A stretch of 64,000 nucleotides of DNA from an uncultured Spirochaetales bacterium (GTDB lineage: Bacteria > Spirochaetota > Spirochaetia > Sphaerochaetales > Sphaerochaetaceae), in the NCBI GenBank assembly GCA_949293595.1, contig CASFDW010000002.1, positions 62,001 to 126,000 on the forward strand, in the 5' to 3' direction. Position numbers and translations under genes: made by a program. Below the pieces are notes generated by a model. It was not told the DNA's origin. It saw only the letters and a list, made by a program, of their open reading frames with translations, and made no database searches. How positions within the stretch are numbered: the stretch's first letter is position 1; every line of letters begins with the position of its first letter. This document shows, piece by piece, positions 1-15,795 of this stretch.

Positions 1-891
1 GATTCCGTTATCTGTGAAGATGTCCGTAAGCTTGAAATCTCAAAGCTGTCACCGATTGATGCACTCGCATTTGGTTTTCCATGTAATGACTTCAGCGTAG
101 TCGGAGAGCAAAAAGGTTTTGATGGCATCTATGGGCCGTTATATACATATGGTGTTAAGGCCCTTCAGATCTTCAACCCGGCATGGTTTCTAGCTGAAAA
201 TGTTGGTGGCCTTCGCTCTGCCAATGAAGGTAAAGCTTTCACAAAGATTCTTTCAGATTTTAAAGCGGCGGGTTACAAAATCACTCCGCACCTATACAAA
301 TTCGAGGAATATGGCGTTCCTCAAGCAAGGCACAGGGTTATAATTATCGGCATCAGAGATGATTTACCGTATGAATTCCGTGTTCCATCCCCTACTCCTT
401 ATCAAAATGATGACAATACTTGCCGCAATGCAATCGAGAATCCGCCAATTCCAGCCGGAGCAATGAACAATGAGAAGACAAAGCAATCAGAGGCTGTTGT
501 CGAGAGGCTGAAATACATCAAACCTGGTCAGAATGCCTTTACAGCTAAAATGCCAGAAGCTCTCAAGTTGAATGTAAAAGGCGCTAGGATGAGCCAGATT
601 TACAAGCGTCTTGATCCAGAGAAACCAGCATATACAGTTACTGGATCAGGCGGTGGTGGTACTCATATCTATCACTGGTCGGAACCGAGAGCTCTAACCA
701 ACAGGGAACGTGCCCGCCTTCAGACGTTTCCTGATGACTACATCTTTGAAGGTTCCAAGGAACAAGTTCGCAAGCAAATTGGCATGGCTGTTCCTTGCAA
801 AGGTGCAAAAATCATTTTTGAAGCAATCCTGAAAACATTTGCTGACATCAATTATGAATCTGTACCGACAAACCTGGAGGATGATGCATGA
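1..891 (+). CDS. DNA (cytosine-5-)-methyltransferase, 5' end missing
   Basis: The reading frame is open from base 1, so the start lies left of the window; 296 residues are visible. Seen in the sequence: the motif IV loop GFPCNDFS with catalytic Cys at visible residue 28, AENVGG (motif VI ENV) near residue 65, QARHR (motif VIII) near 107, the RALTNRERARLQTFPDDY block (motif IX) and a motif X variant GMAVPC in place of the usual GNAVPP. These define C5-cytosine methyltransferases, which transfer a methyl group from S-adenosylmethionine to C5 of cytosine inside a target site. The last 4 bases overlap the next gene, an AlwI-like endonuclease, so this is probably the protective methylase of a type II restriction-modification pair. 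AlwI-type sites are asymmetric and normally need both strands methylated separately, so a second methylase may lie further left. Confidence 0.93.
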   Translation, partial: DSVICEDVRKLEISKLSPIDALAFGFPCNDFSVVGEQKGFDGIYGPLYTYGVKALQIFNPAWFLAENVGGLRSANEGKAFTKILSDFKAAGYKITPHLYKFEEYGVPQARHRVIIIGIRDDLPYEFRVPSPTPYQNDDNTCRNAIENPPIPAGAMNNEKTKQSEAVVERLKYIKPGQNAFTAKMPEALKLNVKGARMSQIYKRLDPEKPAYTVTGSGGGGTHIYHWSEPRALTNRERARLQTFPDDYIFEGSKEQVRKQIGMAVPCKGAKIIFEAILKTFADINYESVPTNLEDDA

Positions 892-2465
892 TAAATGTGT
901 GGTGGTTCACAAGGCCAAAGCGTCGAGTTACTGGCATTCCTAATATCATTGCTTCAGTAGTTTCTGAAGTTATTGGTCAAAAATGGTCTGGTGAAAGAAA
1001 CACACATCTATCTGTAGAGTCGGCACTAGAAAAAGAAGGCTTAAAACGCATTGGGGATCGCAGAGACCAGAGTGGTAGTGGTGCAAGGACATATCTTGCT
1101 TGGCTTCGCTCCTATGGGTTCATCTTTGAATATAACAAGCAACTGGAATTCACTCTTGCAGCAGAAGACATTCTCAATGGTGCATCCCCAGTAGAAGTAA
1201 TGCGAGCCCAAGTTCTGAAATATCAATTCCCCTCAAATTTCAGCACACGCCAGAAATCTGAAGTTGCACCTCGTTTCAAGATTCGTCCATATAGATTTGT
1301 ACTGAAGCTCCTAAAGGACCCAGTACTAAAAGGGTATCTTACTGAAGACGAGATTGCTTTCATTCTTATTGAAGAAGCAGAAAATGAATCCGATAGCTGT
1401 TACAGAAAGGTAGTCAACCATATCCTCGATTACAGAGACAGGGGTAGCGTTGCAATTCCATCCATAGAAGAACTGAATCGCTTATACAGAGATGACAATG
1501 ACGGAAAGATCGGATACTTCACTGATATTGCCAATACTATGGTGAATGTATTCGAGTACACACAGCTCGTTTACAGAACTATCACAGATGAAGGGAAAAA
1601 CTGCATCAAAATAGCCACAGAAGCTTCTGAATATGTTGATTCAATACTCTCAACAAATCCAGCGTTCATTGATCGTCCAGAAGATGAGGTTTATTTCCAA
1701 CGGAAATACGGTGTGGGACCTTTCCATAAGAAGGATACAAGAAACCTGGCCGAAACAAGGACAATAACACCAAAAATCTTGATGGAAACAAACATCAAAA
1801 AGAGTTTCATCAAGTTGTCTTTGCAAGAACCTATATATCGAATTGATTCTCATGTTATAGACATGCTCGTTGCAGATAATGCTTACACATATACGTACAA
1901 CCAGGTTGAAGATGTTGTCAGGGAAGTATACCCAGGCGGCGCTATCAATGGCTTTCTCAGCAACTATTACCAGATGGCGTTCTCAGGAACCCAGCTTGCA
2001 ACAGAGTTTGAGAAAGCTACTGCGGCAATCTTTCATGATGTATTTAATTTTGAAACAGAATGGATAGGATCAAGAGGAAATGTTCCCGATGTGGTCATAA
2101 GTACTGATGATGAAGGATATCAAGCCATCATAGACACAAAAGCATATAATTCATACTCGATAACAAATGATCATTTTAACCGAATGACATACAACTATAT
2201 ACCGAAGATCTATCAATATAGTTTCTCAAGAAATAAGCTTGTTGCGTTTGCTTATATTGCTGGAGGATTTAATAATTCCGTTGAAAAGAATTTACGATGT
2301 ATCGAGCAACTCACCCATGTAAAGGGAAGTGCTTTTACTGTAAATGCTATAATTCAGCTGGTCGAAAAAGCTCTCGAAAACCCAATTCCCCACAAGTCTT
2401 GGAGGCAACTACTATCTTCAGGTAAAGTAATCTCCTCAAGCAAAGGATTGATACTTCCAAGCTAA
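888..2465 (+). CDS. AlwI-family type II restriction endonuclease
   Basis: A 525-residue protein starting with the MINVWWFTRPKRRVTGIP block that I recognise from AlwI-like endonucleases, followed by the family's SGARTYLAWLRSYGF and VLKYQFPSNFS segments. A PD-(D/E)XK-type nuclease core is visible near the C terminus: acidic E373/E375 in ATEFEKA, then PD401, then D416-T-K418 in AIIDTKAY. The family is known for cutting outside short asymmetric sites (AlwI: GGATC); the site of this protein cannot be read from the sequence. ATG overlaps the methylase stop by 4 bases (ATGA), so the two are translationally coupled. The 3' end overlaps by 4 bases the convergent XRE gene. Length is normal for the family and no frame break is seen. 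Confidence 0.88.
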   Translation: MINVWWFTRPKRRVTGIPNIIASVVSEVIGQKWSGERNTHLSVESALEKEGLKRIGDRRDQSGSGARTYLAWLRSYGFIFEYNKQLEFTLAAEDILNGASPVEVMRAQVLKYQFPSNFSTRQKSEVAPRFKIRPYRFVLKLLKDPVLKGYLTEDEIAFILIEEAENESDSCYRKVVNHILDYRDRGSVAIPSIEELNRLYRDDNDGKIGYFTDIANTMVNVFEYTQLVYRTITDEGKNCIKIATEASEYVDSILSTNPAFIDRPEDEVYFQRKYGVGPFHKKDTRNLAETRTITPKILMETNIKKSFIKLSLQEPIYRIDSHVIDMLVADNAYTYTYNQVEDVVREVYPGGAINGFLSNYYQMAFSGTQLATEFEKATAAIFHDVFNFETEWIGSRGNVPDVVISTDDEGYQAIIDTKAYNSYSITNDHFNRMTYNYIPKIYQYSFSRNKLVAFAYIAGGFNNSVEKNLRCIEQLTHVKGSAFTVNAIIQLVEKALENPIPHKSWRQLLSSGKVISSSKGLILPS

Positions 2466-2716
2466 ACCGGGAGATCATTAAATAGCTCAGCAACCTCAAT
2501 TTGAAGATAGGTAGCAATCAAATAACAGGAATCGATTGTTACAGAATGTTCGCCACGCTCAATTCTTCCATAATGAGCTCTGCTTATCTGACAACCTTCT
2601 GCCATACTTGTCTGTGACAAACCTCTCATCTTCCTGATCCGACACAAATTTTGTCCAAAGAGCCTGCGAAAGGTAGCCATTTTCTCCGTTATGGTTTTAT
2701 CACGCTCCTGTGTCAT
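2462..2716 (-). CDS. XRE-family HTH regulator, probable restriction-modification controller (C-protein-like)
   Basis: An 84-residue protein with one Cro/C1-type helix-turn-helix over about residues 19-75 (LCRIRKMRGLSQTSMAEG, then ISRAHYGRIERGEHSV). Small XRE proteins inside type II systems often act as controller proteins that delay endonuclease expression; that role is inferred from position. It faces the endonuclease gene tail-to-tail and is divergent from the AIPR operon. Upstream on its strand are a -35-like TTGATT and a -10-like TATAAG only a few bases before the ATG, so a leaderless transcript is possible. An internal ATG (codon 13, position 2680) has a GGAG just upstream and is the alternative start, giving 72 residues. 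Confidence 0.8.
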   Translation of the reverse strand: MTQERDKTITEKMATFRRLFGQNLCRIRKMRGLSQTSMAEGCQISRAHYGRIERGEHSVTIDSCYLIATYLQIEVAELFNDLPV

Positions 2717-2724
2717 ACTCTTAT

Positions 2725-2755
2725 AATCTTGACTTTATCTACAAAAATCAAGATT
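2725..2755. promoter_or_regulatory. Inverted repeat upstream of the XRE gene, candidate operator
   Basis: AATCTTGA at 2725-2732 and TCAAGATT at 2748-2755 form an exact 8-bp inverted repeat with 15 bases between. It spans the likely promoter of the XRE gene, whose -35-like TTGATT lies inside the right arm. Symmetric sites of this kind are typical targets of XRE/C proteins, so autoregulation is the simple reading; binding itself is inference. Confidence 0.5.
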
Positions 2756-2766
2756 AAAAGCATATG

Positions 2767-2814
2767 TTTGATACATTTATAGCGTTTTAATACTTTTGAT
2801 ACATTTATAGCGTT
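2767..2814 (+). repeat. Two exact 20-bp direct repeats, candidate operator of the AIPR operon
   Basis: TTTGATACATTTATAGCGTT occurs at 2767-2786 and again at 2795-2814, identical over 20 bases, with a 28-bp period. The second copy contains the -35 hexamer of the AIPR promoter. The two copies are the only conserved feature of the gap between the divergent XRE and AIPR genes and are best explained as paired regulator sites. A period of 28 bp is not a whole number of helical turns, so two bound dimers would lie on different faces. Confidence 0.7.
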
Positions 2815-2824
2815 GATCCATAAT
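2796..2824 (+). promoter_or_regulatory. Predicted sigma-70-type promoter of the AIPR-GHKL operon
   Basis: TTGATA (2796-2801), 17 bases, then CATAAT (2819-2824); each hexamer matches 5 of 6 consensus positions. The transcript would start about 30 bases before the AIPR ATG, which is preceded by AGAGG at a proper distance. The -35 lies inside the second 20-bp repeat, so a protein on the repeats would compete with RNA polymerase. Confidence 0.6.
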
Positions 2825-2861
2825 AAACCTACTTTTACACTCCTAATCAAGAGGTACAAAC

Positions 2862-4094
2862 ATGGATAATTCAATTACAACAAAATTCAAAGTCGCTTCT
2901 TGCAAGGAAATTCTAAATCCGTACGCAACATCCAAGGACAAGCTACTTGCAACCCCAAGAATGTTCGTTGCTATCTGCGATGTCATGAATCTTCCAGAAA
3001 ACTTTCCTATGGAAACAAACCCCAGAGATCAAAATCTGAATACAAAGGTCTCGAAAAAGATAAAAGAGTCTCTTATCGGGACAGACAATGATTTCTATCT
3101 TCTGAACAGAGGAATATTGCTGTCCGCAAAGGATGTTTCGTTTAATGCTTATTCCCGTGAGCTTGAAATTGACTTTGGAACACAATATGAGAATGAAACT
3201 CCTGTTTATGGAAACGTTGATGGAGGACATACATACAGGATCATCCTCGAGAATAGGGATTCAATTTCCTCTTCAAACCCTCAATATGTAAAGCTTGAAA
3301 TTCTGACTGGGATTGATGATATCTTTCAGGATCTGGCCGAAGCAAGAAACACATCTACCCAAGTAAAGGACAGCTCAATCAGCAACCTCCAGGGTTATTT
3401 TGACAAACTAAAAAAAACAGTTGCAGGACAGCCATATGCCGACAATATCAGTTACAAAGAGAATGAGGAAGGAGCAATCTCAATCAATGAGATTTTGGCT
3501 ATTCTCAACATGTTCAACATTGATCGTTATCCTGTGAACGATGAAAAGAACTATCCTACAGTTTCTTATAATGGCAATGCACAGTGTCTGAATTACTATA
3601 TTGAGGCACATGAGAAATATAGTGGCACCTCAGAAGAAGCAGAGAATCCATATGAAAAGATGCTTCCAATAGTCAATGACATTTTCCATTTGTATGACCA
3701 GCTGGAACTGCATGTCCAGTCTTACTACAAACAGGCCTTCTCTAATGGTAAATATGGCTCAATTAAAGGTGTTGTCGTAGCCAAAGAAGGTAAACCTGTA
3801 TACAAATCCAAATTCCTTGAACGTCCAATGGGCTACTCTACAGCCAAAGCTTTCATCTATCCTATGCTCGCTACGATGAGAGCCTTTGTAACAGAAAAGA
3901 ATGGAAAGTATTGCTGGGAACTGGATCCTTTCAAAATGCTGGACGAACTCGGCCCCACTCTGATTGAAACAGTTGTAAGAGGAAGCAGAGATGCTGGCAA
4001 TAATCCCAATGCCGTTGGAAAGAATATTCAGATCTGGAAAACACTTTATCAGTCGGCATTCATTCAGAAACTCAAAGCAATGATGAACAAGTAA
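2862..4094 (+). CDS. AIPR family protein (abortive-infection phage-resistance type)
   Basis: A 410-residue protein with the AIPR signature: an early FYLLNRGILLSAKDV segment, GNVDGGHTYRIIL in the place of the family's NGxQT motif, and LAEARNTSTQVKDSSISNL further on. AIPR proteins are known from phage-resistance loci and from operons linked to restriction-modification; their biochemical activity is not settled. This copy is shorter than many family members, which run to 500 or more residues. It is the first gene of a three-gene operon: 22 bases separate it from the GHKL ATPase gene, which in turn overlaps the third gene. The neighbouring restriction-modification genes support a defence role. 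Confidence in the family is good; the role is inferred. Confidence 0.82.
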   Translation: MDNSITTKFKVASCKEILNPYATSKDKLLATPRMFVAICDVMNLPENFPMETNPRDQNLNTKVSKKIKESLIGTDNDFYLLNRGILLSAKDVSFNAYSRELEIDFGTQYENETPVYGNVDGGHTYRIILENRDSISSSNPQYVKLEILTGIDDIFQDLAEARNTSTQVKDSSISNLQGYFDKLKKTVAGQPYADNISYKENEEGAISINEILAILNMFNIDRYPVNDEKNYPTVSYNGNAQCLNYYIEAHEKYSGTSEEAENPYEKMLPIVNDIFHLYDQLELHVQSYYKQAFSNGKYGSIKGVVVAKEGKPVYKSKFLERPMGYSTAKAFIYPMLATMRAFVTEKNGKYCWELDPFKMLDELGPTLIETVVRGSRDAGNNPNAVGKNIQIWKTLYQSAFIQKLKAMMNK

Positions 4095-4116
4095 AAAAAC
4101 ACAGAGGGGAAGAAGC

Positions 4117-6417
4117 ATGAATAAAGTACAGCTACCGACGAATTTTAAGAAGAACGTAAAATTTGTTGTCGACCTATATACAGGCCAAGGCATCGAGTTC
4201 AGTGACGGATTTCAAAAAGACGTCATTCAGAACGCTATGGGAGCTCGTCTAGGAAACAAATTTAACAACTGGAAATGTCGAATAGACCTAATTAATAACG
4301 CAAAAGGAAAATTACTGATTGTCGAAGACGGAGGTACTGTTGGGCTGACAGGTCCAAACTTCACTATGGATGAGATAAGGAGAATGTCTGAGTCAGAGAC
4401 TCCTATCCAATCGTGTTGCCGTCTTGCACGCTTCTCTTCTTTATTTAACTCTGGCGATAACGAAACAGGTGGCGGTCTTTATGGAGTCGGAAAGCTGATG
4501 TACTCAGCAGCATCAGATTCTCTGACATACTGTTTTGACTCTCTCACCAAAGATGGCAAATATGTTGCCAACAAAGTTGAAGGTGGCGAAATTTTGCCAA
4601 TAGCTCTTGAAGATCAAGAAGCTAAAGATTTTATTATCAGCGAAACCTGTCTTTCCGAAAAAACAACAGTTGGAACAAGAGTAATTATATTTAATCCCAA
4701 TGAAGATATCGTCCACGACATACTTAATGGGAGAATAAAGGATTATATTCGCGAATCCTGGTGGTTACTCATGCAGAGGATGAAAGAAGATTCTGGAATC
4801 TATGTTAACGGGGAAAGAATTACCAACTTTGTAGCTCCTGACTACGAAAACAGTTTTAATCTTGCCTCTCCTTGCGAATACAGGCCTGGATATCGCGTCA
4901 AACACCTGGGGTTCTATATTGCGAAAGATACCTCATGTCCTTTCAAGGGATTTTCATACTACAGGAAAGGCATGAAAATCGGAGAGGTTGATATCAGCGA
5001 AGCAAAGATTCCGGACAAAATCGCAGATAGATTCTGGGGCTACATCGAGGTAGAAGATAGCTGGGAAACCGAGTTGGCCGAAATAGAGGATAGTATCCAT
5101 TACGGCATAAAAAAGGGAAAAAAGAGAAGCACATGCTACCAGAATCTCCGCAACTACTCTTCTTCCATCATTCATGACAACCTTGTCAGATGGGGGTACA
5201 TAAAAGAAACAAAGAATGAAGATGCAAAACTGAATGAGGATCTCCAAGAAATTGCCAAAGATATCCAATCCCTGTTCTCGAGGCTTTCAATGCCAAAGCT
5301 AGGACAGGGTGACTCAAAACCTGATTTTGACATTCGTTTGAATAGCATTACATTCCCTGACAGCTCAACTACTCGTGTAACAAGCGGTGATAACATTTCC
5401 TTCTCTGTAATTGTAAAAAACCGAAAGGTTCAGGATGTTATCTTCAGTTATGAAATCCAAGTTTCTCCAGCAAAAGACAGAACTTCGGCTCATGTTATCA
5501 AAAAGGGAACTGTCCAAATCGCAGGAACCAACGAGGCTAGGTTTGACTGTATTTATACGGTTGATACCTCTACAGCTCTGAACGAAGCAGAAAACATTAT
5601 TCAAATTTTAGTTAAAAATCAGGGAGCAAGAAAGAAACTTGAAAGAGCAATACCCTTCTGTTTCAACTGCGACAAAGAAAGGAATGTCCATGAAACAGTA
5701 ATCCTGAATCTCCATTCTTGTTCTTTCCCGAAGCCAGACTCGAGACGTGTTGATCCCAATAACTATCTGACGAACATTTCGTATAGAATTGAGAACCGAA
5801 GAAACGAAGTATTCCCTTATACACTCAGCGTCAGCCTGCATAACGGGAGTGGTGAAAAAGACAAAATCAAGGATATTGCTAGATTAGAAGGCTCAATAGA
5901 TCAGTTCGAAGAGACTATAATTAATATTGATGACATATATTTTGCTCCTCAGGAAATTGAACAATACATTGACAAAGGTCCTCTTGAGTTGCGCGCACGT
6001 GTTATTGCAAATGGTAATAGCGGAGACTACATGAAAGGAGACAGGATTACCAGTCACAAGATGGTCTTCTATTATGCCACCGATGCAAAAACGGGCTTTG
6101 AAAACTCATTTGAAATCATCAGCAGGAAAGAACCAGGCAATCATCGCAGATCTTGGAATGAGATTACAGGCAACTCTAGGAATATTGTTCTCAACATTGG
6201 TCATATTGCATATGAAGGAGTCAAAGGAGATGAGGAAGTTCAACGTGAATACTGCAAGGAGCAGATGCTGAAGCAGTTCGTTCTCCTCTATCTCAGAGAG
6301 GGAAAATATGAAATCTTTGGCATTACTGCAGAGGATCTTGAAAACATAGATCCTGTTGACCTAGTTGATAAGGTTTCAAACGAAATTGAACATGTATACA
6401 GGGAGAGTCTTAACTGA
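4117..6417 (+). CDS. Large GHKL-type ATPase of a putative defence operon
   Basis: A 766-residue protein with an N-terminal GHKL (HSP90/MutL/histidine-kinase fold) ATPase domain. Visible: an N-box-like QKDVIQNAMGA at residues 33-43, a DxGxG-like VEDGGTVGLTG at 69-79, and the glycine-rich lid GGGLYGVGK at 118-126. The segment up to about residue 300 looks like an S5/transducer region as in MutL or MORC; the remainder is rich in beta-strand-like sequence and I do not recognise it. Prokaryotic MutL/MORC-like ATPases in operons with DNA methylases and nucleases have been described by Iyer, Abhiman and Aravind (2008), and this gene fits that setting. A good Shine-Dalgarno (GAGGGGAAG) precedes the ATG. 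TGATG overlap couples it to the next gene. Confidence 0.8.
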   Translation: MNKVQLPTNFKKNVKFVVDLYTGQGIEFSDGFQKDVIQNAMGARLGNKFNNWKCRIDLINNAKGKLLIVEDGGTVGLTGPNFTMDEIRRMSESETPIQSCCRLARFSSLFNSGDNETGGGLYGVGKLMYSAASDSLTYCFDSLTKDGKYVANKVEGGEILPIALEDQEAKDFIISETCLSEKTTVGTRVIIFNPNEDIVHDILNGRIKDYIRESWWLLMQRMKEDSGIYVNGERITNFVAPDYENSFNLASPCEYRPGYRVKHLGFYIAKDTSCPFKGFSYYRKGMKIGEVDISEAKIPDKIADRFWGYIEVEDSWETELAEIEDSIHYGIKKGKKRSTCYQNLRNYSSSIIHDNLVRWGYIKETKNEDAKLNEDLQEIAKDIQSLFSRLSMPKLGQGDSKPDFDIRLNSITFPDSSTTRVTSGDNISFSVIVKNRKVQDVIFSYEIQVSPAKDRTSAHVIKKGTVQIAGTNEARFDCIYTVDTSTALNEAENIIQILVKNQGARKKLERAIPFCFNCDKERNVHETVILNLHSCSFPKPDSRRVDPNNYLTNISYRIENRRNEVFPYTLSVSLHNGSGEKDKIKDIARLEGSIDQFEETIINIDDIYFAPQEIEQYIDKGPLELRARVIANGNSGDYMKGDRITSHKMVFYYATDAKTGFENSFEIISRKEPGNHRRSWNEITGNSRNIVLNIGHIAYEGVKGDEEVQREYCKEQMLKQFVLLYLREGKYEIFGITAEDLENIDPVDLVDKVSNEIEHVYRESLN

Positions 6418-7184
6418 TGGCACATATAGTAGAATTTGATAATACAGGAAATATAATCTACAGAGGGATATTATCCTCGTCCGAAGTATTGCTTTATGAT
6501 AAGCTCATAGAGACTCTACAACAGGACATTCCTCAGATTGAGCAAGATCTAAAAGAACAGTATGGCGACTCTCTTCAGTACAAATACAATTTAGGGAAAA
6601 TCCTCGGTGATATTCTAGCCAAGAATGAAGTGTCTATTAAAGAGAGACGGAGATTCTGGGATGAGATAAAGAATCTTGCGACCACTGAGAACAGAACCAG
6701 GGCTGAGGGAACGAACTCGAAAAGACGAAGTTTCTTCGAACAGTGCTACAGATTGTCACAAATCGAAGAAAAGACTGTGAAAAAACTCTCTTGGCGTCAA
6801 TGGGAATCTTTATTGGATCGCTCAGACAAGAATACTGAAGATGCAAGACTTTTCTCCTGGATTAAGAGATTCCCCAGAAAACTCAAGGAAGATGAATGGA
6901 GAGAGTTCTTGAAAATAATGAATTTATATCTCGATGAAAAGGATACTTCAGTATTTAGTGAGGAGGAACTATTTGAAATATATGATTCAATGATTGTGAT
7001 GGCTGATACCTGGCTTACAAACTTAAAGGATTTCAAAAAAGGACATCCATCAAGCCGAAAACTAGCTTCGTTAGCAACTTGGTCAAAAAAATACTATCGG
7101 AATTGTTTTTCTTATGCACGCTCAAACAAGGAAAAGATTTCTGAAGCGCTATGTCAGGAGCTGTTCAAGGAAATGATGCTTTAA
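6417..7184 (+). CDS. Uncharacterised 255-aa helical protein, third gene of the AIPR-GHKL operon
   Basis: I do not recognise this family. The protein is highly charged and predicted mostly helical, with a heptad-like stretch about residues 25-60 (LYDKLIETLQQDIPQIEQDL) and many Trp/Arg/Lys-rich helices (RRRFWDEIK, LSWRQWESL, KLKEDEWREF). There is no signal peptide, membrane segment, zinc motif or nuclease motif that I can see. Its start codon overlaps the GHKL ATPase stop (TGATG), so the two are translated together and probably act in one complex. In related operons the third partner is often a PD-(D/E)XK protein; no such motif is visible here. The gene ends 6 bases before the left end of an IS256-type element. 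Confidence 0.72.
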   Translation: MAHIVEFDNTGNIIYRGILSSSEVLLYDKLIETLQQDIPQIEQDLKEQYGDSLQYKYNLGKILGDILAKNEVSIKERRRFWDEIKNLATTENRTRAEGTNSKRRSFFEQCYRLSQIEEKTVKKLSWRQWESLLDRSDKNTEDARLFSWIKRFPRKLKEDEWREFLKIMNLYLDEKDTSVFSEEELFEIYDSMIVMADTWLTNLKDFKKGHPSSRKLASLATWSKKYYRNCFSYARSNKEKISEALCQELFKEMML

Positions 7185-7371: not shown

Positions 7372-8600
7372 TCAGGCAAAATCCTCATCGCTTATCCTGC
7401 CTGGGAACGATATCATCAGCTGTGAGATGATCAGGCCCCAGTTGCGGGGCTTGCCGTACCACTTGGCCGTTATGTCCCTCATCGCAAGGAAGAGAAGCTT
7501 GAAGAGCGAATCGTCGGTGGGAAACGCCGTCCTTGTCTTCGTGACCTTCCTCAGCTGTCTGTTGAACCCCTCTATGGCATTGGTCGTATAGATCAGGCTC
7601 CGCATCTCATAGGGATACTGGAAGAAGGATGTCAGCTCATCCCGGTTGTTCCTCCCCAGCTCTTTACTGCGGAAGGATATTTCTTTCCCCATTTCGAATC
7701 GAATGCATCTAGCTGCTCTCATGCCTCCTACTGGGTGTTCACCCTGTAGACCTTCTTGAGGTCAGAGACGAAGACCTTCATGTCCTTCGAGACAACAAAG
7801 CGGGAGGATGAGCGTATCTGGTGTATGATGCATCTCTGGATATCCGTCTGAGGATGGACGGCGGAGATGGCGTCGCAGAAGCCGGAGAGCCCGTCGACGC
7901 AGCATACGAGCATGTCACGTACTCCCCGGACCTTCAGGTCATTCAGCACGCCCAGCCAGTACTTCGCGCTCTCGTTTCCTCCTATGTACATCCCAATCAC
8001 CTCCTTCGTCCCGTCAAGGCGGATGCCTATAGCGATGTAAACAGCCTTCTTCACCACCTGCCCCTCCTCCTTCACATGGTGGTGGATGGCAATTATGAAC
8101 ATGATGATGTATTTGCCGTCAAGGGGCCTCGGGAAGCACCCTGCCGGTTATCTTGCTTATCATCTCCGCAGAGGCCTCTATGCCGTAGATGTCCTCTAGA
8201 TGGGACGAGATGTCCCTTGTGCCCATGCCCTTCGCATACATCGAGATGACCCTGTTCTCCATGTCCGAGACATCCTTCTGGTGCTTCTTCACGATCTGCG
8301 GCTCGAATGTGCTGTTGCGGTCGCGGGGGACACAGAGATCCATGTCCCCGAATGACGTGGTCACGCTCTTGCTGCTGTGGCCGTTGCGGCTGTTGAATCC
8401 GCTTTCCCCGCTATGCTCGTACTTCCCGTAGCCGAGATGCTCGTCGAGCTCCCCCGCGAACATCTCCTGCAGCATCGGTGAGAACATGTCCTTGACATGT
8501 CCTCGATGCCCCTTGCGCTCTTGATTCCGAATTCATCGATGAGCTTCGCGATGAGCTCCTTCCTTTCAGGGCTCAGTTGCTTTGCTGGCTTCTTTGCCAT
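7372..8600 (-). pseudogene. IS256-family (Mutator-type) transposase, multiply broken
   Basis: Pieces of one transposase lie in different minus-strand frames. The N-terminus (MAKKPAKQLSPERKELIAKL, from 8600) runs into a frameshift after GIED near 8490; the next piece (FSPMLQEMFAGELDEHLGYG to KITGRVLPE) ends near 8119, where a short segment expected between RVLPE and RPLDGKY is missing and the frame changes; a third piece covers HHHVKEEGQVVKKAVYIAIG to about 7728; a fourth covers TNAIEGFNRQLRKVTKTRTAF to the stop at 7372. The first catalytic aspartate of the DDE triad, normally in FxDAIH, reads FIIAIH here, so the enzyme would be inactive even if the frame were restored. The second aspartate remains in VDGLSGF. 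Confidence 0.9.
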
Positions 8601-12284: not shown

Positions 12285-13121
12285 ATGACAACCATAGAAA
12301 ACATAACATATGACATGGAGCGTTCATTATACGGGCAAAAGAATCTTATACTGAAAAACTGTGCGTTCGACGGCCCCGCGGACGGAGAAAGCGCATTGAA
12401 GGAATGCAGCAACATTATTGTCGAAAACACATTCTGCAATCTCCGCTACCCTTTCTGGCATGACCATGGCCTAAAAATTTCAGGCTGCACAATGACCGAA
12501 CTGTGCAGGGCGGCGATATGGTACTCCGACAACATAGAAATATCATCATCCCATCTTCATGGCATCAAGGCTCTGAGGGAATGTAGCGACATCCTGATAA
12601 AAGACTGCGACATCATCTCTCCCGAATTCGGCTGGTCGGTAAAGAATCTCGGGATGAAGGATAGTACAGCTGAAAGCGAATACTTTTTGATGCGTGGAGA
12701 AAACCTCCATCTTGAAAACATCAGCTTCAAAGGAAAATATTCCTTCCAGTACACGGAAAATCTCAAGATGGAAAGCTCCACTCTCGATACAAAGGATGCA
12801 TTCTGGCATACCAAGAATGCGGTGCTGAAAGACTGCACCATAAACGGCGAATATCTCGCCTGGTACTCGGAGAACCTTACGCTTATTAACTGCAGGATTA
12901 CAGGAACACAGCCGTTCTGCTACTGTAAAGGCCTCAAGCTGATCGATTGCGAAATGACCGACACGGACCTCTGCTTCGAGAAATCAGAGGTGGAAGCAAC
13001 AATAAAGACCCATGTCATCAGCATCAAAAATCCCGCGTCGGGAACAATAACAGTTCCTTCCGTAGGAGATATCATAATGGATGATGCGAATGCTAAGGGA
13101 AAAATAACCGTACAGGGATGA
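12285..13121 (+). CDS. DUF3737 family protein (right-handed beta-helix-like repeats)
   Basis: 278 residues from the ATG at 12285, chosen because GGAG lies 8 bases upstream; an upstream in-frame TTG at 12249 has no such site. The protein is built of repeating units of about 18-22 residues with the pattern L/I-x-[DN]-C (LILKNCAFDG, NIEISSSHLHG, DILIKDCDI, LHLENISFKG, AVLKDCTINGE, LTLINCRITG, LKLIDCEMTD), which is how DUF3737 proteins look and implies a parallel beta-helix. The function of the family is unknown. Codon use and GC are closer to the housekeeping part than to the HEPN neighbour, so it may be a chromosomal gene caught between mobile units. No signal peptide is seen. Confidence 0.8.
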   Translation: MTTIENITYDMERSLYGQKNLILKNCAFDGPADGESALKECSNIIVENTFCNLRYPFWHDHGLKISGCTMTELCRAAIWYSDNIEISSSHLHGIKALRECSDILIKDCDIISPEFGWSVKNLGMKDSTAESEYFLMRGENLHLENISFKGKYSFQYTENLKMESSTLDTKDAFWHTKNAVLKDCTINGEYLAWYSENLTLINCRITGTQPFCYCKGLKLIDCEMTDTDLCFEKSEVEATIKTHVISIKNPASGTITVPSVGDIIMDDANAKGKITVQG

Positions 13122-13234
13122 TCAGTCGATAGAATGAAGCATCACCTCTTCTGGATTATCAGGATTTGTGAGGATGGTTCATGATCAATTACGTTTGCAT
13201 ACCACCAAGATAAAATATGCATCAAGCTATGCCG

Positions 13235-13380
13235 ATTCAGTGTAACTGAATGGCATTAGCGGCCACGCTAATGCCATCACAATCCTTAGTCTACAGCTAG
13301 CATGGACAAGGAATGTAATGACCGGCTTTTATACCGTCGGTATATGGCCAGCCGCTCCGGCCTCTACTGCTGATAGCAGT
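13235..13380 (-). ncRNA. Candidate omega/reRNA-like structured 3' flank of the TnpB-like gene
   Basis: The 145 bases downstream of the TnpB-like gene hold four to five hairpins: ACTGCT/AGCAGT with 3-base loop at 13366-13380, overlapping the stop codon; a GGCC/GGCC pairing at 13346-13362; ATACCG/CGGTAT with 1-base loop at 13331-13343; an 11-bp stem TGGCATTAGCG/CGCTAATGCCA with 4-base loop at 13251-13276; and ATTCAGT/ACTGAAT at 13235-13251. TnpB nucleases are guided by an RNA made from the 3' end of their gene and the adjacent element end, so this is the expected place for it. The boundaries and the RNA itself are inference. Part of it may instead be an insertion-element end palindrome or the DUF3737 terminator. 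Confidence 0.35.
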
Positions 13381-14642
13381 TACCTTCCGCTTTTTCCTGG
13401 AATTACAGGAAAATGTATCACCTTGGGATGGGAAAGCATGCTCAGATCCTGATAATCGACAACACCTCCTTTCTGCAAAACATACTTCCGATATATATTC
13501 CACGCCCCTACCGCATCTGCATTGAAGTTCACTCCGGAAGAATCCAGATACAGCCCTCTCTTGATTCGCCTTTCCTTTTCCGCATGCACCTTATCTATCG
13601 CCTTGGAACATGGGGAGCACTGGCTGGTGAAGGATTCATCAATCATCACAAGCTGCACACCCATCATCTTGAGCTTGTATCCGAGCATCTTATAAAAACG
13701 GTCGTATGGAAAAGAATGGAGCATCTGATTCATCCTCTTTCCCTTGTCGTTGTTTATTCTTATACCGTTGAGGTTCCCGACAATCACGGTATTTATCGAA
13801 TTATCAAGGGCATACGAAGCAATGTAACGCGTAACGATATGAAGTATCTCTTTTATCTTGTTGTTCCTCTTTTCATAAAGCCATGCAACCTTTTTGGAAT
13901 TGAACCGTCTACCGTCATCCTTGTTTTTATCCAGAATCTGATATCTTGCTATCTGCTTTGCAAAATACTGCGAGCACTCAAGCCACTCCCGCCCAAGGAT
14001 CAGGACCTCCTTGGTGGAAGGACAGCACAGTGTGACAGGATTTTTGATTCCAAGGTCTATGGAAAGATACCTGCCGTTGTCATCAAGACCATTCTCTTCT
14101 GCAACCCTATAGAGCAGATTCACCCTCATGATTCCATCACATGGAGGAAATATCTCCAGATGCGCTATTTCATCAAATTCAGAGAAAATGTTGTTCTGCA
14201 AAACAAGGCTGAATATCCCGATGCCGAATTTTGTTTTCAGATATCCGGTCAAGGTGGAGCTTAAAGGTATTATCACCTTATCATTTCTCTTATAAAAGGA
14301 ATTCTTCGGAAAGACACAGATGAATTTATCACCCTGATAATTCGGCATCTGCACATTCTCCACATTGCTTTTCTTTCGGGCCCAATAGCTTTTCCAAGCC
14401 CAGTCAACCTTCTTCAGCACCTCCCCTGCAACGGAAGGCCCCAGCTGTTTGAAGAAAACATTATCCTCCAAACCGCTTTTTTGAGAATGAAGATTGGGAA
14501 CAGCCTTTCCCTCTCCAAACCGGAACTCACGCCTTTCGAACAAGGCGGCATTCCATACCTTTGCCGCGGAATAGCAGAGATGGCCGACCACGACCTCCAT
14601 TTCAGGAGTAAGATGAATTTTTGTCTGTTTAATCAACCACAT
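13380..14642 (-). CDS. TnpB-like RNA-guided nuclease (IS605 OrfB family) with relocated RuvC-II glutamate
   Basis: 420 residues of TnpB architecture: an N-terminal helical part (CYSAAKVWNAALFERR), then RuvC-I with D196 in LSIDLGIKN, the RuvC-II position reading VIVGNLNGI where canonical TnpB has Glu, and RuvC-III with D376 in NADAVGAWNI. A glutamate E336 in MIDESFTSQCSPC, 47 residues after the usual site, is the likely replacement, as described for the rearranged-site TnpB/Fanzor branch. Only the first zinc-finger CxxC (C342, C345) is kept; the second pair is absent. No TnpA lies nearby, so the element is either non-autonomous or domesticated. The ATG lacks an obvious Shine-Dalgarno. Alternative: an inactive remnant, but the frame is intact. 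Confidence 0.82.
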   Translation of the reverse strand: MWLIKQTKIHLTPEMEVVVGHLCYSAAKVWNAALFERREFRFGEGKAVPNLHSQKSGLEDNVFFKQLGPSVAGEVLKKVDWAWKSYWARKKSNVENVQMPNYQGDKFICVFPKNSFYKRNDKVIIPLSSTLTGYLKTKFGIGIFSLVLQNNIFSEFDEIAHLEIFPPCDGIMRVNLLYRVAEENGLDDNGRYLSIDLGIKNPVTLCCPSTKEVLILGREWLECSQYFAKQIARYQILDKNKDDGRRFNSKKVAWLYEKRNNKIKEILHIVTRYIASYALDNSINTVIVGNLNGIRINNDKGKRMNQMLHSFPYDRFYKMLGYKLKMMGVQLVMIDESFTSQCSPCSKAIDKVHAEKERRIKRGLYLDSSGVNFNADAVGAWNIYRKYVLQKGGVVDYQDLSMLSHPKVIHFPVIPGKSGR

Positions 14643-14790
14643 ATACCATATTAGTCTGATAAACTAATGGTTTGGTTAATCATAATTCACATAAATCTAA
14701 ATATATCAATTCCTGTTAGCCGTCAGTTACAGATTCGCAACACCAACATAATGAACATTTTCTTTCGATCCATCCTTCATATAACAAAAA

Positions 14791-15795
14791 TTAAGAAAAA
14801 GATTTTGCGATGATCCCATCAATCAATTCTTCCGTAGATCCATAAATCCCGGATTCGAAACGGTAAATATACTGATTATGGTACTCAAGGTACTTTGCAA
14901 CTTCATCATCCATATGACGTAGATATTTTGAATCATCAATATTCATTTTACTTAGATTCTTCCACATCTTCTGGCTTTGCGTCTCAGGCAAGATAATACG
15001 TCCGGTATCAGGAGAAAATGAAATAACACCTTTATCAAACAACTTGTCATAATTTGGCGTGAGTAACAACGAATTATGGGGATCCACCCGTTCCGCATTG
15101 GTTGATTCCCTCCAAGGCTTTATATGACTTGCTATCAGCCAGTCGACATTGTCCACTCCAGTGACCGCACAGCGACCATCCCAATATGCAATGGCCTTCT
15201 GCCGATAAAAAGTCTGGGCATTTCTAACAGATGTGAAAATCTCGCTTTCCGTCCGTAACGGCACAGTGACAGTTTCTTCATCATACGAGACCGGATGCTC
15301 AAGAAAATAATTGGGAGACAGAGTATGAACATCTTCAACACCACGACTTCTGCATAAAGAGGCATACTCAACAAGATCAAAGACGATACGTGATGGATTG
15401 CCCAATTCCCAGTTGATCTGCATTCTTATTGGTACGGCACGACCATAATAAAAATAGGGTTGCTTCCTTCTTTGCTGTATAAAAACAAACGTATCCTTGG
15501 CCCCATCGATCAATGCCTTCTCCGTAGTCTTTATACTGTTTTGTCCAGACCAGAACAAAGTCGTTCCATAAAGATGATCCGTATAAGTCTCTGTCGAATA
15601 TCTATCCTTTTCCAAATGCATTAAAAGTATTTGGGCATCCTGATTCTTAGGCGCCAGAACACCCTTTCCTTTCGCAGCTTGCGGTTGCCATCCGATCAAT
15701 GTTGCCAAATAATCAAGTTTATATGTATTTCCTATGATGAGGCAATCAACCAGTTTTCTGGACAAACCATCATGCCGTTCGGCAAAACCTTCCAT
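14791..15795 (-). CDS. DUF3427-like / HNH endonuclease
   Basis: 334 residues in two parts. Residues 15-125 resemble DUF3427, a module seen attached to helicases and nucleases in defence loci (NTYKLDYLATLIGW, then LYGTTLFWSGQNS and TFVFIQQRR). Residues 205-265 form an HNH_2-type nuclease: CAVTGV, ASHIKPW with H224, PHN239-241, and PNYDKLFDKGVISF. Proteins with a C-terminal HNH of this kind include modification-dependent restriction enzymes, but the target of this one cannot be told. It lies as a single gene, upstream of the TnpB unit and downstream of a DUF2075 helicase on the same strand, with 150 bases in front. Start taken as the first ATG; no strong ribosome site decides it. Confidence 0.75.
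   Translation of the reverse strand: MEGFAERHDGLSRKLVDCLIIGNTYKLDYLATLIGWQPQAAKGKGVLAPKNQDAQILLMHLEKDRYSTETYTDHLYGTTLFWSGQNSIKTTEKALIDGAKDTFVFIQQRRKQPYFYYGRAVPIRMQINWELGNPSRIVFDLVEYASLCRSRGVEDVHTLSPNYFLEHPVSYDEETVTVPLRTESEIFTSVRNAQTFYRQKAIAYWDGRCAVTGVDNVDWLIASHIKPWRESTNAERVDPHNSLLLTPNYDKLFDKGVISFSPDTGRIILPETQSQKMWKNLSKMNIDDSKYLRHMDDEVAKYLEYHNQYIYRFESGIYGSTEELIDGIIAKSFS

What the first reader, a model, noticed from the sequence alone, without database searches (positions are those of the whole stretch)
13235..14642. Lone TnpB with relocated RuvC-II glutamate and a hairpin-rich 3' flank
The canonical Glu position is Gly (VIVGNLNGI) and a Glu 47 residues later (DESFTSQ) is in place to replace it; one half of the zinc finger is gone. 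There is no TnpA. Five hairpins follow, one overlapping the stop codon, in the position of the guide RNA. Position between defence genes raises the chance of a domesticated RNA-guided nuclease.
Basis: partly seen in the sequence, partly recalled or inferred. Interest (0 to 1): 0.65.

Follow-up and report, generated by a model that had tools for sequence, protein, structure and literature searches.

The report
Lone TnpB nuclease, alternative-glutamate clade
This is a stand-alone TnpB gene, a small RNA-guided DNA cutter carried by a mobile element, with its probable guide-RNA sequence right behind it; its odd-looking catalytic site is the normal one for a large, already described branch of TnpB proteins, so it is essentially ordinary.

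Summary
The ORF 14642..13380 (-) is a 420-aa TnpB (NCBIfam guided_TnpB 140 bits, cut-off 100). Gly289 sits where most TnpBs have Glu, and Glu336 takes its place. This is not a private relocation: all 42 sequences on its side of the tree carry the alternative Glu, canonical-Glu TnpBs form the other side of one branch, and the Ealt/D-Phi-G clade is published (PMC10711439). Nearly all of that side also lacks the zinc finger, so CSPC is not a finger remnant. The 3' flank (13382-13235) is a real structured right end: folding z -4.4, hairpin density reached by no shuffle, and compensatory changes against a 75% relative. It shares a core with the right ends of two further relatives, so it is very probably the omega/reRNA. 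Neither TnpA family is found in the genome. Relatives are multicopy with shared ends in one genome and broken by stops in another: mobile-element behaviour rather than domestication. Restriction/AIPR-type genes are nearby, but nothing links TnpB to them, and the putative guide has no exact 20-base match among viral contigs. Verdict: a new member of a known kind.

The parts
13380..14642 (-). tnpB, 420 aa, D196-E336-D376 RuvC triad with Glu at the alternative position (Gly289 at the canonical one), no zinc finger
   Evidence: ORF; NCBIfam guided_TnpB 140.1 bits over cut-off 100; Pfam; invariant columns; tree
13235..13382 (-). right end / predicted scaffold of the omega (re)RNA: six hairpins, the first touching the stop codon
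   Evidence: fold z -4.39; hairpin density 0/1000 shuffles; compensatory pairs and shared core with relatives
13275..13320 (-). long hairpin of the predicted omega RNA with compensatory changes (CATTACA/TTGTGATG against CATTGCCA/TGGCAATG in L032)
13251..13276 (-). subterminal palindrome TGGCATTAGC..GCTAATGCCA, counterpart of the subterminal hairpin before the right tip in the G066 and L068 relatives
13215..13239 (-). stretch that would hold the guide just beyond the right tip (starting at TGAAT, 13239, or at CGGCATAG, 13234, depending on the exact tip); inferred
   Evidence: position only; identity with L031 runs 10 bases past the terminal hairpin, then stops; no target found
14643..14701 (-). 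possible left end with an imperfect palindrome CCATTAGT..ACTAATATGG just before the start codon; weak
   Evidence: DNA fold z only -0.31; sequence resembles the right-end palindrome; inference

Best explanation
It is a non-autonomous (lone-tnpB, IS1341-like) insertion element. tnpB makes an RNA-guided DNA endonuclease of the Ealt / D-Phi-G clade. The transcript running through the 3' end of tnpB and the right end supplies the omega (re)RNA scaffold, and the ~16-20 bases of host DNA beyond the right tip supply the guide. By analogy with ISDra2 TnpB, the complex would cut a donor site from which the element has been lost, next to a transposon-associated motif, so that repair from the sister copy restores the element. 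Shown here: gene, clade, catalytic residues, predicted fold, conserved structured right end, no TnpA found. Inferred: transcription, processing, cleavage, guide, target motif and maintenance role.
For: guided_TnpB 140 bits over cut-off. The D-E(alt)-D triad is invariant in 24 aligned sequences where present, with Gly at the canonical site in all. One Ealt/Ecan change on a 53-row tree with those two columns left out, branch support 97. AF2 model, mean pLDDT 83.8; Z 20-25 to Cas12f and TnpB, 18.9 to Fanzor2. Right end z -4.39. Against L032, five helix pairs differ and all five still pair, three of them changed on both sides. AGCAGTA..GGNN/NNCC core shared with L034, L040, L068. In G066 two left ends and two right ends each share sequence up to a sharp edge and have different flanks. 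Published Ealt clade (PMC10711439) and reRNA/maintenance mechanism (PMC8612924).
Against: No transcript data. The left end and the exact right tip are not fixed. No empty site was found. Only four distinct right-end sequence types were available for covariation, and the helices were partly chosen by eye.
Confidence: 0.88

Rival explanations
1. A domesticated RNA-guided nuclease kept by the host for defence, using a fixed guide against invaders and working beside the neighbouring restriction genes.
For: No TnpA found in the genome. The copy persists next to the DUF3737 gene in two species with few non-synonymous changes (6 N and 6 S, dN/dS 0.26). FokI-type nuclease, AIPR, HNH and Schlafen-type helicase genes lie nearby.
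Against: Relatives are multicopy in G066 and broken by stops in L032. No flanking DNA is shared with L032. Neither putative guide 20-mer occurs in 2.9 million viral contigs.
Confidence: 0.05
2. A TldR-like, nuclease-dead RNA-guided repressor.
For: Such exaptations of TnpB exist (PMC13418256, abstract).
Against: The full D-E-D triad is kept here and in relatives. No own-genome target apart from two 2-mismatch 16-mers.
Confidence: 0.02
3. An inactive remnant: a TnpB element that can no longer move and is on its way to becoming a pseudogene.
For: The 75% relative has a TAG at codon 30 and a TGA at codon 419. No TnpA found for mobility.
Against: The window copy is intact, its triad and right end are intact, and its differences to the 98% relative lean to synonymous.
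Confidence: 0.1

Closest known systems
Ealt / D-Phi-G clade of TnpB (PMC10711439)
   Same: Glu at the alternative RuvC-II position, D-Phi-G (here DLG) in RuvC-I, prokaryotic mobile-element setting
   Different: The subclade holding the window lacks the zinc finger altogether; its nearest relatives found are 98% and 75% (spirochaete MAGs) and 38-40% identical
IS607 TnpB of Helicobacter pylori plasmid pAL226 (WP_012881334.1)
   Same: Alternative Glu, no zinc finger, same layout of the last RuvC motif
   Different: Accompanied by an IS607 TnpA; about 27% identical
ISDra2 TnpB and its reRNA (PMC8612924)
   Same: Fold (8h1j Z 20.8, 8exa Z 20.3); structured RNA spanning the 3' end of tnpB and the right end
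   Different: ISDra2 comes with a TnpA; its catalytic Glu was not compared here residue by residue
Cas12f
   Same: Best fold matches (AsCas12f Z 24.8)
   Different: Cas12f2 model 48.9 bits, far below its cut-off of 450; a transposon-type right end follows the gene

Membership tests
TnpB (RNA-guided endonuclease) | Scores over the curated guided_TnpB cut-off | tested here: met
   140.1 bits, cut-off 100
TnpB (RNA-guided endonuclease) | RuvC D-E-D triad | tested here: met
   D196, E336 (alternative), D376; invariant in the alignment
TnpB (RNA-guided endonuclease) | Structured right end adjoining the 3' end of the gene (omega/reRNA scaffold) | tested here: met
   by sequence only
TnpB (RNA-guided endonuclease) | Bound guide RNA and guided, motif-dependent DNA cleavage | not testable with these tools
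   Needs RNA sequencing and biochemistry
Ealt / D-Phi-G TnpB clade | No Glu at the canonical RuvC-II position, Glu at the alternative one, D-Phi-G in RuvC-I | tested here: met
   G289, E336, D196-L-G; single change on the tree
Fanzor / pro-Fanzor | DPG motif in RuvC-I together with Ealt | tested here: not met
   Motif is DLG
Autonomous IS200/IS605 or IS607 element | Linked TnpA | tested here: not met
   No Y1 or IS607 TnpA found in the genome
IS1341-like lone-tnpB element | Both ends defined by other copies or an empty site | tested here: inconclusive
   Right end bounded by L031 and L032; left end not; ends defined only in the G066 relatives
TldR | Loss of RuvC catalytic residues | tested here: not met
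   Triad complete

The most novel reading that the evidence does not exclude
A vertically kept, immobile Ealt TnpB without zinc finger, with an enlarged omega RNA, used by these spirochaetes as a resident RNA-guided nuclease inside a defence-rich region.
Probability: 0.04. Interest if true: 0.55.

Novelty: new member of a known kind. Interest (0 to 1): 0.2.

Why it matters
It adds a small spirochaete subfamily, with its probable guide-RNA scaffold, to the zinc-finger-less Ealt TnpBs. The mosaic 75% relative suggests that the N-terminal half and the nuclease half of TnpB can be exchanged between elements. Otherwise the finding is explained by known biology.

Tried and rejected
Rfam scan of 12900-15000: no match up to E = 1. 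Close relatives in viral contigs: none for the window protein or L068 alone; 36 with the profile. Empty-site search with both flanks: the left flank has only partial matches inside the HNH gene, and the right flank finds only the DUF3737 gene elsewhere, so no empty site could be shown. Guide targets: no 20-mer match in viral contigs; only self and two 2-mismatch 16-mers in the genome. Left-end hairpin: not more stable than shuffles. CRISPR arrays near the gene were not searched for. The half-finger idea was dropped because the finger is absent from the clade.

Full report
What is there. The minus-strand ORF 14642..13380 codes for 420 aa. NCBIfam guided_TnpB scores it 140.1 bits against a cut-off of 100. 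Pfam finds OrfB_IS605 and Cas12f1-like_TNB over their cut-offs. An AlphaFold2 model from an alignment of 24 sequences (mean pLDDT 83.8, pTM 0.72) matches AsCas12f at Z 24.8, ISDra2 TnpB at Z 20.8, IS607 ISFba1 TnpB at Z 20.6 and mimivirus Fanzor2 at Z 18.9, each over about 340-360 residues.

The relocated glutamate. But G289 and E336 are both invariant columns of the 24-sequence alignment. In a 53-row tree built without the two columns in question, the 42 rows with the alternative Glu (window included) and the 11 with the canonical Glu are separated by one branch (support 97, one change, shuffled mean 10.2). The alternative-Glu rows include plasmid, phage and archaeal proteins and the IS607 TnpB of H. 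pylori pAL226. The literature names exactly this state: Ealt with D-Phi-G (PMC10711439). The relocation is therefore an old, shared trait and not an event in this gene.

The zinc finger. In the alternative-Glu rows sampled here only the outermost one, L096, keeps two CxxC pairs. The nearest relatives read CSPY, CSPL and CSPH where the window has CSPC. The lone CxxC is thus most simply a chance pair, not half a finger.

The right end. The region 13400-13235 folds at -63.5 kcal/mol, z -4.39, with no shuffle as stable. In 13385-13235, 60 of 151 bases lie in perfect hairpin stems of 5 bp or more, against a mean of 9.6; none of 1000 shuffles reaches that. Identity to L032 (Spirochaetaceae MAG, 75% protein identity) ends at 13235 exactly, and identity to L031 (98%) ends at 13225. 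Five helix pairs differ between the window and L032. All five stay standard pairs, and three changed on both sides: C-G to G-U in the second hairpin, A-U to G-C and A-U to C-G in the long one. A mismatch in the window is also a pair in L032. Two more distant relatives, the G066 genome and a human faecal phage record (L068), with 38-40% protein identity, share the core AGCAGTA-GG..CC after the gene. There the stem is GGUG/CACC in place of GGCC/GGCC. This is good though limited evidence for a conserved guide-RNA scaffold: the helices were in part chosen by eye and only four sequence types exist.

Mobility. Neither a Y1 transposase (PF01797) nor an IS607 transposase (NF033518) is found in this genome, which is 94% complete. 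One other TnpB gene, with the canonical Glu, is present. In the related genome G066 there are four fragments of the same subfamily: three run into contig ends and one is truncated. Two left ends and two right ends are alike up to a sharp edge and then differ, with a palindrome GGTAATTCAATTACC inside the left tip and GGCAATTTAATTGCC inside the right tip. That is the anatomy of a mobile element of the IS200/IS605 type. L032 carries TAG at codon 30, TGA at codon 419 and Tyr for C345, but keeps D-E-D. In L031 the element lies before the same DUF3737 gene, with 1.4 kb of other DNA between where the window has about 80 bases, so this copy has probably been inherited in place. Differences to L031 are 6 synonymous and 6 non-synonymous, dN/dS 0.26.

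Surroundings. Towards the start of the window lie a FokI-type nuclease gene, an AIPR gene, an uncharacterised 766-aa/255-aa pair, a Mutator-family transposase remnant, and AlbA_2 and HATPase_c_4 genes. An HNH gene and a Schlafen-type helicase gene lie on the other side. Two readings of the putative guide give no exact 20-base match in 2.9 million viral contigs, and in the genome a 16-mer finds only itself and two 2-mismatch places.

How it most likely works. As in ISDra2 (PMC8612924), TnpB would bind an RNA made of the right end plus the flanking host bases and cut DNA that matches the flank next to a short motif, favouring retention of the element. Transcription, processing, cleavage and motif are inferred, not shown.

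Verdict. It is a new member of a known kind and of low interest.

Noticed in passing
window 14642-13380 against L032 3001-4260: Mosaic gene: codons 1-205 differ at 72% of synonymous sites (near saturation), codons 206-420 at 29%; identical codons among conserved residues 59/109 against 156/192 (p about 1e-6). Suggests recombination between elements near codon 220, joining a different N-terminal half to the same nuclease half.
   Followed up: partly
L031 1344-2781: In the 98% relative about 1.4 kb of other DNA with open frames lies between the right end and the DUF3737 gene, where the window has about 80 unrelated bases.
   Followed up: no
window 888-7184: Run of four plus-strand genes: FokI-type nuclease, AIPR protein, then a 766-aa and a 255-aa protein without significant family matches; looks like a defence operon not named by the libraries used.
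   Followed up: partly
window 7372-8487: Mutator-family (PF00872) transposase broken into several minus-strand pieces.
   Followed up: no
L096: Viral-contig TnpB with the alternative Glu and both CxxC pairs, outermost on the alternative-Glu side: fits loss of the zinc finger after the Glu moved.
   Followed up: no
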